From NCBI GenBank assembly GCA_023666965.1, contig JAMPAZ010000001.1, forward strand, positions 165,223 to 229,222: a stretch of DNA of 64,000 nt, given 5' to 3'. This stretch comes from Muribaculum sp. Its GTDB lineage: Bacteria; Bacteroidota; Bacteroidia; Bacteroidales; Muribaculaceae. Below are positions 1 through 57,453 of the stretch, piece by piece. The translations under genes and the position numbers were made by a program. The notes beneath the pieces were generated by a model. It saw nothing but the letters and a program-made list of their open reading frames with translations, had not been told where the DNA came from and ran no database searches. The stretch's first letter is position 1, and every line of letters begins with the position of its first letter.

Positions 1-45
1 TACACAAGTTAATCTTCTTTCAGAAGCAAATGATATTTTGACACA
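1..45 (-). repeat. End of a nested-palindrome repeat element, cut by the window edge
   Basis: Positions 14-26 form a hairpin with stem CTTCT/AGAAG and loop TTC (GAA on the minus strand), followed at 38-45 by TTGACACA. The same order, ACACAA - TTC-loop hairpin - TTTTGACAC, ends the two full elements at 27080-27337 and 28691-28976. The rest of this copy would lie upstream of the window. Confidence 0.6.
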
Positions 46-16688: not shown

Positions 16689-16727
16689 TATCTCAAAATG
16701 CAATTATCGCATTTGAAAGATGCACAA
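16689..16727 (+). repeat. Solo end of the nested-palindrome repeat family
   Basis: Sequence from TCTCAAAATG through GCATTT-GAA-AGATGC (16709-16723) and ACAA matches the end of the elements at 27080-27337 (in reverse) and 28691-28976 over about 35 bases, including CAATTATCGCAT. The stem has one T.G pair (T16713/G16719), allowed in RNA. No second end is nearby, so it is a solo end. It lies 3' of the minus-strand malQ stop. Confidence 0.6.
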
Positions 16728-16733
16728 ATGACC

Positions 16734-27079: not shown

Positions 27080-27337
27080 TGTGTCAAGGTGTAAATAACG
27101 CATCTGAAAGATGCGTTAACTGTGTAGCCGGGCAAATCGGTCGTTAGACCGATTTGCCCGGCTTTATATTGGAGTAATCTGCAAAATCTGCAAAGATTTA
27201 TTGTTGATTAATAAGTCGTTAAATCTTTCCAGATTTTATTGCTGTCTCAAACATAAACCGGAGATAGGCGCGTTGCGCCAATCCCCGGCTAATCAGTTTT
27301 GTGCATCTTTCAGATGCGATAATTGCATTTTGACACA
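27080..27337. repeat. Full nested-palindrome element, copy A (258 bp)
   Basis: Ends are exact inverted TGTGTCAA (27080-27087) and TTGACACA (27330-27337). In order: TAACGCATCT-GAA-AGATGCGTTA (27096-27118); TGTGTA; a 17-bp stem 27126-27142/27147-27163 with GTTA loop; AAATCT-GCAA-AGATTT (27184-27199); an AT-rich centre; AAATCT-TTCC-AGATTT (27221-27236); a GGCGC-GTT-GCGCC hairpin inside CCGG arms (27258-27288); GCATCT-TTC-AGATGC (27303-27317). The order of parts is mirror-symmetric. There is no open reading frame. It lies 20 bp from the end of purT. Confidence 0.8.
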
Positions 27338-27357
27338 CCGGGATGCGACGCACCCCT

Positions 27358-28548
27358 CTATCGAGGTAAAACATTTACGCGCAATGCATTATACGCGCGT
27401 TCGGCCTTCTCACGAGCCTCGTCTACAGTATCGGCCGTGGCCAAAATCACACCCATACGACGATGGCCCTTAATCTCCGGCTTGCCGAATATGCGCATCT
27501 GCACCCCCGGCTCCTTCAGAGCCTCATCAAGATTGTCAAACTCTATCTTGTCAGTGTCGCCCTCTACCACCACCGCACGCGATGCCGACGGCCCGTAGAA
27601 GCGAATTGACGGCACAGGCAATCCAAGCAATGCCCGGGCATGAAGCCCAAACTCGCTGAGATCCTGCGAAATCATTGTCACCATGCCGGTGTCGTGCGGA
27701 CGCGGCGATACCTCGCTGAAAATCACCTCGTCGCCCTTGACAAACAGCTCAACTCCGAATATGCCGTAGCCTCCCAGTGCGTCGGTCACCTTCTTGGCTA
27801 TCTCCTGCGCATTTTCAAGCGCTTTGGCCGCCATCGGTTGGGGCTGCCAAGAGTAGCGATAGTCGCCGTCTATCTGCACATGTCCTATCGGCTGGCAATA
27901 CGTCGTACCCGAGCAGCTGCGCACGGTCAAAAGAGTAATCTCATAGTCAAAATCAACAAAACCCTCGACTATGACACGCCCGGCACCCGCCCGGCCACCC
28001 TCCTGCGAGATGTGCCACGAACGGTCGATGTCGGCTTCTGTACGGGCAACACTCTGACCGTGACCCGACGAACTCATAATCGGCTTGATGACGCACGGCA
28101 GTCCAATTTCTGCCACAGCGGCCTTAAACTCATCATAGTCCGAAGCAAAGCGGTAGCGCGAAGTGCGTATGCCAAGCTCCTCCGCAGCCAAACGACGGAT
28201 GCCCTCGCGGTTCATCGTCAACCATGCGGCTCGCGCAGTCGGAGTGACGTTATATCCCTCTGCTTCAAGCTCAAGGAGCGTAGGAGTCGCGATTGCCTCC
28301 ACTTCAGGGATGATATGGTCGGGCTTTTCAAGTTCGACTATCTCGCGGAGTTTTGCTCCGTCAAGCATATTAAACACGTGGCATCGATGAGCCACCTGCA
28401 TCGCAGGCGCATTCGCATAACGGTCGCAGGCCACAACCTCGACTCCGTAGCGCTGCAGTTCGATTGCCACTTCCTTTCCCAACTCACCGCTCCCCAAAAG
28501 CAGAGCCTTCCGGCCCACAGGGGTCATCACTGATCCAATTTTTGCCAT
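27358..28548 (-). CDS. purT: Formate-dependent phosphoribosylglycinamide formyltransferase
   Basis: Purine biosynthesis step 3: formylates GAR using formate and ATP, independently of formyl-folate. 396 residues, the normal length. ATP-grasp enzyme: N-terminal [31 protein letters not shown] dinucleotide-like fold (about 12-45), [29 protein letters not shown] in the ATP-binding part, and [27 protein letters not shown] metal/ATP site. Start ATG 28548 lies about 25 nt below a good promoter. The gene is bracketed on both sides by copies of the nested-palindrome element. Confidence 0.96.
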
Positions 28549-28576
28549 ACGTCGAAATTCGTTTATTATTCTTCCA

Positions 28577-28584
28577 CAAAGTTA
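28577..28584 (-). promoter_or_regulatory. purT promoter (-7 element)
   Basis: Minus-strand TAACTTTG matches TAnnTTTG and would start transcription near 28570, about 20 nt before the start codon. Confidence 0.55.
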
Positions 28585-28652
28585 CGACATTTCCCCCTCG
28601 CATCCAAACAATTCGCCGTTCCCGCCGCGCATCAACGCCCCCGCCCCCAGTA

Positions 28653-28686
28653 AATGCACCGGAGATGCATCACCCCGTAACCCGGG
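28653..28686. repeat. Short extragenic repeat joined to element copy B
   Basis: AATGCACCGGAGATGCATCA followed by CCCCGTAACCCGGG closely matches 24933-24965. A TGCAnC-GGA-GATGCA hairpin is formed. It abuts the second full element, so the two repeat types seem to travel or accumulate together. Confidence 0.55.
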
Positions 28687-28690
28687 TAAA

Positions 28691-28976
28691 TGTGTCAATA
28701 TGCAATTATCGCATCTGAAAGATGCTTAATTTGTGTAGCCGGGTATTCCCTACGGGCGCGTCCGTGACGCGATTAGTAGCGTAGCGAAAATGCCCGGTTA
28801 GAAATGCAAACAAACAATCAAATCTGCAAAGATTTAACCTCCTGACAGACTACAAAAAATCTTTACAGATTTTACATATTACTCCGATATTAAACCGGGC
28901 AAATCGGTCTACCGACCGCTTTACCCGGCTACACAATTTTCAAGCTTCCTTCAGAAGCTACTCGTGTTTTGACACG
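28691..28976. repeat. Full nested-palindrome element, copy B (286 bp)
   Basis: Same part order as copy A: TGTGTCAA end (28691-28698); GCATCT-GAA-AGATGC (28711-28725); TTGTGTAGCCGGG...CCCGG enclosing CGCGTC-CGT-GACGCG (28757-28771); AAATCT-GCAA-AGATTT (28820-28835); AAATCT-TTAC-AGATTT (28857-28872); CCGGG..GGTC-TACC-GACC..CCCGG (28895-28928); ACACAA; GCTTCC-TTC-AGAAGC (28944-28958); TTGACACG end (28969-28976). Inner hairpin sequences differ from copy A while pairing is kept. No coding capacity. Confidence 0.8.
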
Positions 28977-31283: not shown

Positions 31284-32657
31284 TCAATTCAAAGATATGT
31301 ACAAATAATTTTCAGGATTGGACTTATCTTCTAAAATTAATTTACTGGGAGCGAACCGATTGCTTGTGACAATTTTAAAATCACACGAATTAAAGTAGTC
31401 CAAAAATTCTCCCACGACAGGAACTCTACCAATAACAAGCCCGGCATTAGTATCCACATCAGTCTTAGAATATGAAATCTTAACCGACTCGCCATCATCT
31501 ATTACAGTTTCATCACCAAAGAAGTAATATTCAGCTTTAGAACCATTTCTCTTATAGTTCAAAACGTACTTCTTATTCGTCGAAGAATATTCCATATCAA
31601 AACCTTTGAAAGTCACCTTCATCACAGATTTCGATTGAGAATTTATTGCATCCATGTATTCTGCAAACTTGCCTCCACACCGAGTATGATCAATATGCCA
31701 GGAATATTCTTTCATACTAAATATGTTTCCCAGCCCAATGCAATCAAGGACAATGTTCTGTCCTCCATCAGTACAGAGGAATTTACCATTGTCTTGGAGT
31801 GTGAAATTTTCGACAATTATCGAATCAGATGCATTAGCGCACTCTATTGCCAGCGGTAGGCGGAAACGAATTGAATTAGGCCCAATTAGCGCATTCATAG
31901 TCACCGTTTGCACTACCGGGTCACCATCCTTAGGATAAATGCTAAACAACCCCTTCGGCCCTCCTGAAATTACAAATTGCTCACCTGTAGCAGAATTTGT
32001 CAGCAAATAGTCAGGAAATATGTTAGAAAATGTCGCCTGAGAAGCTATGTAATATTCCGATAAAATCTCTGCGTTGTCAACATTTGCATCAAGACGATGT
32101 AAATATATATCATACAGACGCTTCTTACCTGTTAAGTGAACTGTTTGCCCATCCTCAGAAACTCCAATGACAACAAATTCATAATCACCTGCGTGACCCT
32201 CTCCAGTTTCATCAATGTCTTTGTTATTATTATCCGGATTGGTCGGAGCCTCGTCTCCCTCAATATTTTCAGGAGTCGAAAACAAGTGGAACACTGAATT
32301 ATATGTATTAAAAGACAACACTGGACCATTATCTGCTACCATCTGCCACAGTGATACTTCCGACTTATATGCTCCATTCATCCATACATTCTGTCCGCTA
32401 ACTTTTACACTCCCATCCGAGTTAAAATCCATAACGAACACATAACCACGTTCTTCTTCGTTTGCGAAGTATTCCATTAACCACTTCCCTCCATTAGAAG
32501 TCAGTACGTCGGAATAAAGCTTCTTGTATTCGTCGAGACGCTGAGCTGCAGAGCCGTCAAATATGTCATCCTCCTCATTCTTACAAGAAGAGAGACCAAT
32601 TGACAAGCCAATCAGCAATGCTGAAAGCGCAAATTTATATAGTTTCATATATTTCAT
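31284..32657 (-). CDS. DUF4302-type lipoprotein
   Basis: Predicted surface or periplasmic lipoprotein, function unknown. Start chosen at ATG 32657 (MKYMKLYKFALSALLIG) because the longer start at 32681 lies inside the preceding gene; ATG 32648 is an alternative. The lipobox is GLSSC. The N-terminal part RLDEYKKLYSDVLTSNGGKWLMEYF and RGYVFVMDFNSDGSVKVSG are characteristic of the family, as is FVVIGVSEDGQTVHLTGKK. A low-complexity acidic stretch (TNPDNNNKDIDETGEGHAGD) interrupts it. Neighbour of a SusCD pair and a metallohydrolase lipoprotein, an association I recall as recurrent in Bacteroidetes. Confidence 0.75.
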   Translation of the reverse strand: MKYMKLYKFALSALLIGLSIGLSSCKNEEDDIFDGSAAQRLDEYKKLYSDVLTSNGGKWLMEYFANEEERGYVFVMDFNSDGSVKVSGQNVWMNGAYKSEVSLWQMVADNGPVLSFNTYNSVFHLFSTPENIEGDEAPTNPDNNNKDIDETGEGHAGDYEFVVIGVSEDGQTVHLTGKKRLYDIYLHRLDANVDNAEILSEYYIASQATFSNIFPDYLLTNSATGEQFVISGGPKGLFSIYPKDGDPVVQTVTMNALIGPNSIRFRLPLAIECANASDSIIVENFTLQDNGKFLCTDGGQNIVLDCIGLGNIFSMKEYSWHIDHTRCGGKFAEYMDAINSQSKSVMKVTFKGFDMEYSSTNKKYVLNYKRNGSKAEYYFFGDETVIDDGESVKISYSKTDVDTNAGLVIGRVPVVGEFLDYFNSCDFKIVTSNRFAPSKLILEDKSNPENYLYISLN

Positions 32658-56712: not shown

Positions 56713-57453
56713 TTACTTCGAGATTGAGACGATAAAATCAGCGCCTTTGTCGACAATAAGGTCATGCCCGTCGGCGTTAAGATGAGCCGTATCGTTGACA
56801 CCTTTGTCTTGAAAATATTTTGCACGGTAATCAGGGTCGTTTACCTTTATGCCTCCGGCCGCCTCGGCATCGAACACGGGTATGCCGTAGTCCCCACATA
56901 TACGTTTTATCGACGCAATAACCTGCTTGAAATAACCTCTGTCGACATTCCACGGCAACACGTAGCCTAAGTCAGCATCGGGATAGCGTTTCTTAAGATT
57001 TTTCAAAAGCTCCTCAAGGGCATTGTCGAACTGTGCAAGCTCGGCATCAGACTTTATCATCGAGGCATCGTTGTGTCCGGCTATTATCAACAGACAGTCG
57101 ATAGAATCAGGCAAATCCTTGTAGCGTTCGGTCATGGCTTTGCCGAAACCTTCAGAAGAGCGGTCGAAAAGGATTGAACTGCCGTTTACACCACAGTTGA
57201 CATAGTTCATGCCCAAGCGGGAAGCGACTTTAGAATGCCATGTTTCAGATACCGGACGGCGGTGATTGCGCACATAGCTGTCGCCGAACACACATAGTGT
57301 ACGACCATCAAGCCGGATGGCGGAAGAGTCGGGATTAGCAACTTTAGCGGGAACTGTCTCCGCTTCAATGACTGCCGCAAGATCGGTCTGAGAGTATGAG
57401 CTGAGAACAGACAGAGCCATTATACACAGCACAAATAGTTTTTCCATATTCAA
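56713..57453 (-). CDS. Secreted SGNH/GDSL hydrolase (probable carbohydrate esterase)
   Basis: Likely deacetylase acting with the GH115 downstream. 246 residues; signal peptide about 1-22 (SSYSQ cleavage). Block I LCVFGDSYV with the Ser nucleophile, block III IIAGHNDAS, block V DTAHLNADGHDLI with Asp and His; the Gly of block II is in NCGVNGSSILF. The second Met at 57447 is an equally possible start. Substrate (acetyl-xylan or another glycan) is inferred from its operon partner. Confidence 0.8.
   Translation of the reverse strand: MNMEKLFVLCIMALSVLSSYSQTDLAAVIEAETVPAKVANPDSSAIRLDGRTLCVFGDSYVRNHRRPVSETWHSKVASRLGMNYVNCGVNGSSILFDRSSEGFGKAMTERYKDLPDSIDCLLIIAGHNDASMIKSDAELAQFDNALEELLKNLKKRYPDADLGYVLPWNVDRGYFKQVIASIKRICGDYGIPVFDAEAAGGIKVNDPDYRAKYFQDKGVNDTAHLNADGHDLIVDKGADFIVSISK

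What the first reader, a model, noticed from the sequence alone, without database searches (positions are those of the whole stretch)
27080..28976. Two 258-286-bp nested-palindrome elements bracket purT
Both copies have TGTGTCAA / TTGACAC(A/G) inverted ends and the same mirror-symmetric order of parts: GAA-loop hairpin, TGTGTA-CCGG hairpin, AAATCT-GCAA-AGATTT, AT-rich centre, AAATCT-TTnC-AGATTT, CCGG hairpin, TTC-loop hairpin. Inner hairpin sequences differ between copies but still pair. No transposase is encoded. This looks like a MITE or REP-type mobile family maintained for structure, and I cannot match it to a named one. A third end lies at position 1-45 and a solo end at 16689-16727.
Basis: seen in the sequence. 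Interest (0 to 1): 0.78.

Follow-up and report, generated by a model that had tools for sequence, protein, structure and literature searches.

The report
Mobile hairpin repeats with their transposase
The two odd palindromes beside purT belong to a family of at least 56 scattered, probably mobile DNA repeats, and the likely enzyme that moves them, of a class recorded until now as having no such repeats, sits elsewhere in the same genome inside a copy of the repeat.

Summary
Two mirror-symmetric elements (27080-27337, 28691-28976) bracket purT. They belong to a genome-wide family: 102 strong half-element matches at 56 places, with 39 facing pairs of halves, 30 of them exactly 21 nt apart.

The genome has one detected Y1/HUH transposase gene (C11:470938-471378, outside the window). 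It lies between two halves of the same element. Its motifs are those of TnpA-Y1 "subclass 1.2", whose table entry for REP sequences reads "no" (PMC6006769).

Inverted flanks surround most relatives of this gene: 24 of 29 family loci and 67 of 78 testable loci of a wider scan beat their shuffles. By eye many show the same order of hairpins, in Planctomycetota and Verrucomicrobiota too. At 12 orthologous sites in the closest relative, G132, the element is absent; G132 has its own diverged tnpA with mirrored halves elsewhere. No target-site duplications.

Best reading: a REPIN-like non-autonomous element moved as single-stranded DNA by a subclass 1.2 TnpA, a new variant of the RAYT/REP kind. The catalytic link is untested. 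Against it: some genomes carry such elements without a detected Y1 gene, and exact ends are unresolved.

The parts
27080..27337 (.). element copy A, 3' of purT (20 nt after the purT stop)
27080..27090 (+). left terminal inverted repeat of copy A (TGTGTCAAGGT)
27100..27114 (+). outer hairpin hp1, left (GCATCTGAAAGATGC)
27124..27163 (+). GTAG foot plus long hairpin HP2, left
   Evidence: (I6)
27184..27199 (+). inner hairpin hp3, left (AAATCTGCAAAGATTT)
27200..27220 (+). 21-nt AT-rich centre (the place where tnpA lies in the gene-bearing copy)
27221..27236 (-). inner hairpin hp3, right
27258..27292 (-). long hairpin HP2, right, with TTAG foot (CTAA on +)
27303..27317 (-). outer hairpin hp1, right
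27327..27337 (-). right terminal inverted repeat of copy A
28691..28976 (.). element copy B, upstream of purT (142 nt before its start)
28711..28725 (+). copy B hp1, left
28735..28798 (+). copy B GTAG foot plus HP2, left (long variant)
28820..28835 (+). copy B hp3, left
28836..28856 (+). copy B 21-nt centre
28857..28872 (-). copy B hp3, right
28895..28932 (-). copy B HP2, right, with GTAG foot (CTAC on +)
28943..28959 (-). copy B hp1, right (AGCTTCCTTCAGAAGCT)
1..45 (-). fragment of the outer part of a half-element (cut by the window edge)
   Evidence: E = 1.2e-4
16693..16728 (+). degenerate solo outer end plus hp1
   Evidence: E = 1.4e-4
27358..28548 (-). purT, the bracketed host gene (not part of the element)

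Best explanation
The two elements are copies of a non-autonomous, REPIN-like mobile element of about 255-285 bp. Each is an inverted dimer of one half-unit: terminal inverted repeat, small hairpin hp1, an NTAR foot (GTAG or TTAG here) with a long hairpin HP2, and small hairpin hp3; the halves meet at a 21-nt AT-rich centre. The likely mobiliser is the genome's one detected Y1/HUH transposase, of the IS200-like subclass 1.2, whose gene lies at that centre in one (end-truncated) copy. Inferred mechanism: when the element is single-stranded, for instance on the lagging-strand template, it folds; TnpA binds the hairpins, uses the NTAR foot as a guide as GTAG is used in REPs, cuts and joins single strands, and new copies arise in intergenic DNA without target-site duplication. 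Shown: the family, its anatomy, compensatory pairing, the tnpA-between-halves arrangement, recurrence of inverted flanks across genomes and phyla, presence/absence between relatives. Inferred: that this TnpA acts on these copies, the cut sites, and whether movement is copy-out or cut-and-paste.
For: Copy number and anatomy: 102 half-matches at E<=1e-6 at 56 places; 39 facing pairs, 30 with exactly 21 nt between halves. One Y1_Tnp hit in the genome; 146 aa, Y1_Tnp E = 4e-24, IS200/IS605 model 74.3 bits against cut-off 55. Its gene lies between half-matches C11:470812-470911 (+, E 1.4e-24) and 471428-471528 (-, E 1.9e-20). Pairing in 89 G000 halves aligned by sequence: 87.6% of cells paired against 82.8% mean and 83.8% maximum in 200 shuffles; 148 cells changed on both sides against a mean of 77.6 and maximum of 96. 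Recurrence: 24 of 29 tnpA loci in the family have inverted flanks above the 99th percentile of shuffles; 53 of 58 of these flanks hold a [GAT]TA[GA]CC foot at -170 to -55 against 15% of shuffled flanks; 67 of 78 loci of the named-genome scan exceed all 30 shuffles. The closest relative's own diverged tnpA (G132:C10:56684-57109) is likewise bracketed by facing half-matches at C10:56575-56671 (+) and 57197-57293 (-). Co-occurrence of half-element model R1 with close tnpA after dropping the 18 genomes the model was built from: 24 of 30 against 70 of 249, p = 4.7e-8. Presence/absence: 12 of 12 orthologous sites in G132 without the element (caveats in the Against line). Two copies in genome G246 are 96.6% identical over 296 nt in different surroundings. 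No target-site duplication in 32 elements. Sites: 0 divergent, 18 convergent, 16 tandem of 34 classified by rough ORF calls; 1 of 39 overlaps an ORF of at least 110 aa.
Against: 29 of 152 genomes without a tnpA hit at E<=1e-10 still have R1 matches; of the 10 strongest, 7 have no Y1_Tnp hit and one (G141) only a copy with 3 stops, yet G034 and G172 hold elements with the full layout. Relics, assembly gaps (G172 is 59% complete) or another mobiliser could explain this. 11 of 78 tnpA loci lack inverted flanks above shuffles, among them Chryseobacterium daeguense, C. piscicola and Algoriphagus aestuariicola. The G000 tnpA copy lacks the outer terminal repeats, so no complete gene-bearing element was seen in this genome. 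Of the 12 G132 sites, the one upstream of purT has a gap of similar length (479 against 518 nt) with a weak R1 match (E = 0.017, 0.51), and one other gap overlaps a weak profile match (E = 0.0023). In one search the number of pairs with a two-sided change (13) is no higher than when partners are slid (7-16), unlike the share paired. Exact ends are unproved, because intergenic DNA of G132 is too diverged to align. The genome is 83% complete, so another transposase could be missing. No biochemistry.
Confidence: 0.78

Rival explanations
1. A classical MITE: short inverted terminal repeats (GAGGCTGTGTCAAAAT) recognised by a DDE transposase, with the nested hairpins only passengers.
For: The terminal repeats are well conserved (positions 1-11 at 88-98% in 89 ends chosen for reaching the end of the profile); elements in G246/G259 also have outer inverted repeats, of another sequence (GGGCAACCGCACCAAAAT).
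Against: No target-site duplication at any offset 0-8. No DDE transposase with these ends was met in the loci that I read, but I made no exhaustive search for one. The internal hairpins show compensatory change, and similar internal layouts flank a Y1 gene in other phyla.
Confidence: 0.08
2. A host-maintained structural element (transcription terminator, mRNA 3' protector or nucleoid site), with the tnpA association coincidental.
For: No divergent-promoter sites among 34 classified; several G132 gaps contain ordinary terminator-like hairpins at the same places.
Against: Absence of the element at 12 of 12 orthologous sites in G132; tnpA lies between halves here and in relatives; near-identical copies sit in unrelated surroundings in G246. 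A position downstream of genes is also usual for REPs (PMC3733652, passage), so it does not decide.
Confidence: 0.06
3. A fossil family: the elements were spread in the past by this or a related TnpA but are no longer mobile, and are kept passively.
For: tnpA is single-copy and its own flanking copy is end-truncated; genomes with elements but no detected Y1 gene exist; many copies are truncated or solo.
Against: Absence of the elements from a same-genus relative sharing gene order; 96.6% identical copies in G246; tnpA is open and carries the catalytic motifs.
Confidence: 0.25

Closest known systems
RAYT / TnpA-REP systems with REPs and REPINs (REPtrons; Quentin 2018 class 2)
   Same: Y1/HUH gene flanked by inverted hairpins with a GTAG-type foot; many dispersed intergenic copies, largely as inverted dimers with a conserved centre; low tnpA copy number; absence from divergent promoters.
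   Different: Transposase is IS200-like (Y-x3-Q-x2-HH, not Y-x3-NP) and below the RAYT model's cut-off (21.6 against 80 bits); each half has three hairpins, not one; elements are about 255-345 bp with terminal inverted repeats; the foot is NTAR across the family, not only GT[AG]G.
TnpA-Y1 subclass 1.2 (Quentin 2018, PMC6006769)
   Same: DH[IV]H, WQ, YIxNQKEHH motifs, about 148 aa, low copy, Bacteroidetes.
   Different: [quoted passage not shown] here the gene is embedded in such structures, with dispersed copies.
IS200/IS605 insertion sequences and their MITE-like derivatives
   Same: Protein family (NF033573 above cut-off), hairpin ends, no target-site duplication.
   Different: Ends are mirror images of each other; three hairpins per end; the gene is single-copy in G000; no tnpB apparent among ORFs of at least 90 aa in the 5.5-kb tnpA locus (no profile search made).
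TIRYT / TIRtrons (Di Nocera 2013, PMC3733652)
   Same: Y1 gene flanked by long inverted repeats; REP units can be joined to other hairpins.
   Different: Of the 26 published cases 20 belong to subclass 2.1, with an HTH tail and mostly a GGGGWSAS motif, according to PMC6006769.

Membership tests
TnpA-Y1 subclass 1.2 | HUH motif DH[IV]H | tested here: met
   DHVH in the protein
TnpA-Y1 subclass 1.2 | Y-x3-Q-x2-HH signature (YIKNQKEHH) | tested here: met
   YILNQKEHH; Q115, H118 and H119 invariant in 16 aligned relatives
TnpA-Y1 subclass 1.2 | short core plus about 30-aa C-terminal tail, about 148 aa in all | tested here: met
   146 aa; Y1_Tnp match 3-115 leaves a tail of about 31 aa
TnpA-Y1 subclass 1.2 | placement in the subclass by tree with reference members | not tested
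   no reference sequences at hand; assignment rests on motifs and length
RAYT (class 2 TnpA-REP) | Y-x3-NP motif / RAYT profile | tested here: not met
   REP_Tyr_transpos 21.6 bits against cut-off 80; motif is NQKEHH
RAYT (class 2 TnpA-REP) | gene flanked by inverted REPs with GT[AG]G foot, dispersed in the genome | tested here: met
   GTAG feet on both sides of tnpA in G000; dispersed copies; NTAR rather than GT[AG]G in relatives
IS200/IS605 (subclass 1.1) | IS200/IS605 transposase profile | tested here: met
   NF033573, 74.3 bits against 55
IS200/IS605 (subclass 1.1) | complete mobile copy carrying tnpA, usually several per genome | tested here: not met
   one Y1 gene, flanks end-truncated
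IS200/IS605 (subclass 1.1) | insertion without target-site duplication | tested here: met
   32 elements with both ends intact
REPIN | two inverted REPs with a conserved spacer | tested here: met
   30 of 39 with a 21-nt centre; two centre families, each found in both orientations
REPIN | movement of the dimer as one unit | tested here: inconclusive
   whole dimers present/absent between G000 and G132 and shared at 96.6% in G246, but no exact empty site
DDE MITE | target-site duplication | tested here: not met
DDE MITE | autonomous element with the same terminal repeats | not tested
   no exhaustive search for DDE genes beside these ends

The most novel reading that the evidence does not exclude
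The subclass 1.2 TnpA proteins are a third lineage of single-strand 'REPtrons' beside RAYTs and IS200/IS605. In at least three phyla (Bacteroidota, Planctomycetota, Verrucomicrobiota; others by metagenome labels) they live between mirrored three-hairpin half-units (hp1, foot-HP2, hp3) and, in at least some genomes, populate the genome with non-autonomous inverted dimers that co-diverge with them and can outlive them.
Probability: 0.6. Interest if true: 0.8.

Novelty: new variant of a known kind. Interest (0 to 1): 0.7.

Why it matters
Quentin and colleagues (2018) left subclass 1.2 as IS200-like proteins without REPs or IS ends, and so without a known substrate. These loci supply a concrete candidate substrate in many genomes, which makes the function of the subclass directly testable by single-strand cleavage assays. 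They also add an independent case of how a transposase and a population of miniature structured elements coexist, and give a profile by which such elements can be annotated in gut Bacteroidales, where they are easily taken for terminators or left blank.

Tried and rejected
Rfam: no match in the window at gathering scores. Viral contigs: no stretch matched the tnpA patterns used. Cargo idea: two partial elements at C55:30332-30451 and 31687-31804 bracket an acyltransferase gene (PF01757); rejected as a cargo-bearing element because G132 has the gene at the same place between syntenic flanks (71.7% aa) with shorter gaps on both sides, and the left piece ends in its own right terminus. Target-site duplications: no excess (at k = 4 one match each at two offsets, expected 0.25 and 0.11; none at k = 5, 6 or 8). 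Exact empty sites: attempted for purT and for eight loci; the intergenic identity was too low to fix ends. Verrucomicrobial genome of L226: only copies on the tnpA contig plus one elsewhere, so dispersal there is unproved; the Pirellulaceae genome of L224 has matches on five other contigs.

A belief mended on checking: (stricter filters, at most 13 candidates scored a genome) I had taken G132 to have no half-element at all. The full R1 search of the 1.59 Mb of G132 that I hold gives 8 matches at E 0.0007-0.035, two of them facing each other around G132's own tnpA homologue, and one more at E = 0.51 in the gap upstream of purT. So G132 has its own diverged family; what it lacks is the G000 family at the 12 sites.

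Limits of the counts. The 22 halves of alignment A1 were chosen for having all three hairpins, so its pair counts are biased, and I lean instead, where the structure is still the fold of the consensus of those sequences and contains some pairs outside the three hairpins. R1 counts per genome are floors. In one search, 30 of 53 halves had all three hairpins against 2 of 2120 shuffles, but 41 of 307 other TARCC anchors in the same loci did too; these may be further copies and I did not sort them. The anchors were picked by the foot pattern itself; its enrichment was tested apart. In one search flanks paired across genomes reach a maximum of 112, so related genomes share sequence. The 39 'full' elements are a + half followed by a - half within 60 nt and include truncated ones. 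One of 30 loci was not parsed, and 2 of 80 had flanks too short to test. Searches are taken to cover the same 297 genomes (same handles).

Reading of papers: PMC6006769 outline, abstract, section 12 and passages; PMC3733652 passages; PMC8266576 passages; PMC3116915, PMC2817692, PMC3686654, PMC8049555 and PMC4596501 (P. gingivalis MITE) only in listings. That subclass 1.2 elements are undescribed rests on searches of an open-licence library; subscription papers and supplements were not seen. ISfinder was not available.

Full report
What is there. The window lies at C11:165223-229222 of a 2.4-Mb, 83%-complete genome in 66 contigs. The two elements stand 20 nt after the purT stop and 142 nt before its start. 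Each is a mirror image around a 21-nt centre. Read inward from either end it has: terminal repeat TGTGTCAAAAT or a variant, hairpin hp1 (GCATC-TGAAA-GATGC or a GCTTC type), a foot GTAG or TTAG at the base of a long CCGG hairpin (HP2), and hairpin hp3 (AAATCT-GCAA-AGATTT). Folding as single-stranded DNA gives z = -13.4 and -8.7.

Family. Whole-genome searches with each copy and with the end pattern (43 hits, 0 in the control) led to 212 kb of fetched DNA, the window included. A profile of the half-element finds 115 half-matches there at E<=0.01 and 102 at E<=1e-6, at 60 and 56 places; there are 39 facing pairs of a left and a right half, 30 with exactly 21 nt between. The inner hairpin pattern gives 95 hits against 0, a few of them outside the fetched DNA, so the count is near complete for this assembly but a floor. 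Two centre sequences recur, ATTGTTGATTAATAAGTTGTT and TTATCTGGCTGACAAGCGGTT with variants, in both orientations. Among 89 ends conservation reaches out to GAGG[C/G] just before TGTGTCAAAAT and fades by position -8. Among 89 halves aligned by sequence alone, pairing is kept through changes on both sides more often than in any of 200 shuffles (148 cells against a maximum of 96), and 87.6% of cells pair against 30-49% with partners slid; the number of pairs that show a two-sided change is not higher than in the slid versions.

The transposase. A Y1_Tnp scan of the whole genome gives one gene, 146 aa: HUH motif DHVH, catalytic motif YILNQKEHH. NCBIfam calls it IS200/IS605 (74.3 bits, cut-off 55); the RAYT model stays below its cut-off (21.6 against 80). 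Solved relatives by sequence are transposases, ISHp608's among them. The gene lies between a left and a right half of the same element family (E = 1.4e-24 and 1.9e-20), directly inside the two AATCTGCAAAGATT hairpins, where other copies have only the 21-nt centre. More copies stand on both sides of it. The outer terminal repeats of the gene-bearing copy are missing.

Known class, missing substrate. Motifs and length match TnpA-Y1 subclass 1.2 of Quentin et al. 2018 (PMC6006769), described as IS200-related, low-copy, mostly in Cyanobacteria and Bacteroidetes, with REP 'no' and generally without IS200-type end structures. My assignment rests on motifs and length, not on a tree with their members.

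Is the arrangement general? Homologues at E<=1e-10 occur in 145 of 297 genomes of the family. Of the 30 loci returned, 29 could be parsed; in 24 the upstream and downstream flanks are inverted repeats of each other beyond 99% of shuffles, median score 66, against 19 (maximum 112) for flanks paired across genomes. The sequences differ between genomes, but the order hp1 - foot - HP2 - hp3 - gene recurs. A foot [GAT]TA[GA]CC stands at -170 to -55 in 53 of 58 flanks, against 873 of 5800 shuffled flanks. All three hairpins were found in 30 of those 53 halves against 2 of 2120 shuffles (41 of 307 other TARCC sites in these loci also pass). Inverted flanks beyond all 30 shuffles were seen in 67 of 78 testable loci, 40 of 45 Bacteroidales among them; the three-hairpin order is readable in, for example, L215 and L224 (Planctomycetota) and L186 and L226 (Verrucomicrobiota). 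In some the match is a single short hairpin only. The 11 misses include Chryseobacterium daeguense, C. piscicola and Algoriphagus aestuariicola.

Dispersed copies elsewhere. A covariance model (R1) of the half-unit, built from 22 halves of 18 genomes, finds all four halves in the window, 39 halves in 20 G000 loci and matches in 111 of 297 family genomes. Leaving out the 18 source genomes, R1 matches occur in 12 of 13 genomes with tnpA at E<=1e-33, 12 of 17 at 1e-33 to 1e-27, 14 of 38, 27 of 59, and 29 of 152 with none. Facing halves with a centre of 16-28 nt are listed for G246, G259, G231, G221, G206 and G076, and with 117 and 185 nt for G148. Two G246 copies are 96.6% identical over 296 nt in different surroundings, and G259 and G246 copies have their own outer inverted repeats. 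A Pirellulaceae genome has matches on five other contigs.

Presence and absence. The closest genus relative, G132 (PurT 97% identical), keeps the gene order around purT, and neither element is found there, apart from a weak R1 match upstream of purT (E = 0.017, 0.51). With 1.59 Mb of G132 at hand, 12 of the 39 elements have both flanks in order there, and no gap holds a member of the G000 family; one gap overlaps a weak profile match (E = 0.0023) that reads as a terminator-like hairpin. The G132 gap is shorter by 180-785 nt at ten sites, by 1665 nt at the tnpA cluster (1810 against 145 nt), and by only 39 nt upstream of purT. Two partial copies flanking an acyltransferase gene are absent too. 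G132 is not free of the system: it has a diverged tnpA at C10:56684-57109 (40% identical) between facing R1 half-matches, and five or six further weak ones. With one close relative, loss in G132 cannot be excluded locus by locus, but loss at 12 of 12 sites together with the tnpA cluster is less likely than gain. By rough ORF calls the elements avoid divergent promoters (0 of 34) and genes (1 of 39 overlaps an ORF of at least 110 aa). There is no target-site duplication.

Reading. The anatomy is that of a REPIN-like dimer; the transposase is IS200-like. The sensible mechanism is single-strand cutting and joining by TnpA on folded DNA, with the NTAR foot in the role that GTAG has in REPs (guide role: PMC8266576, passages). 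That step is inferred.

What speaks against it. Of the ten genomes with the strongest R1 matches but no tnpA at E<=1e-10, seven have no Y1_Tnp hit, one has a copy with three stops, one a weak partial match, and one (G086) a Y1 gene at 7e-13 by the Pfam model; yet G034, 99% complete, has a complete-looking element. REP-type populations that outlive their transposase would look so, but so would a different mobiliser.

Noticed in passing
L062:2041-2327 (G000:C11:470540-470826): Next to tnpA lies a tandem array of units of roughly 50-60 nt (CGGACGACTTCTGAAACTTAGAAATCTACGGATTAGACCGCACCATTCT...) that ends in the hp1-like hairpin GGCTTCTGAAAGAAGC, as if hp1 with a spacer had been amplified in tandem.
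   Followed up: no
L079 (G000:C55:30332-31804): Two partial elements bracket an acyltransferase gene (Acyl_transf_3), resembling a cargo-bearing element; the gene is at the same place in G132 without them, so the bracket is secondary.
   Followed up: yes
L309, L319, L313, L314 (genomes G259, G246): Elements there carry outer inverted repeats GGGCAACCGCACCAAAAT...TTTTGGTGCGGTTGCCC of a different sequence but in the same position; both this and the G000 repeat contain CAAAAT.
   Followed up: partly
L288:16575-17523 (G132:C10:56575-57523), L135, L281: The closest relative has its own diverged tnpA bracketed by facing half-unit matches, plus a few weak matches elsewhere: a separate family of the same kind, not at the G000 sites.
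   Followed up: partly
G018, G034, G036, G042, G050, G161, G172: Strong half-element matches in genomes in which no Y1_Tnp was found: orphan element populations (the full layout was read in G034 and G172; G172 is only 59% complete).
   Followed up: partly
G076:C11:147423, C18:732, C27:20099: Several diverged tnpA units in one genome; two are 87% identical over 709 nt including flanks, and one carries a stop codon, so gene-bearing units may move or duplicate now and then.
   Followed up: partly
window 27358-28548: purT (formate-dependent GAR transformylase by its Pfam domains) with both flanks occupied by separate copies of the same family.
   Followed up: yes
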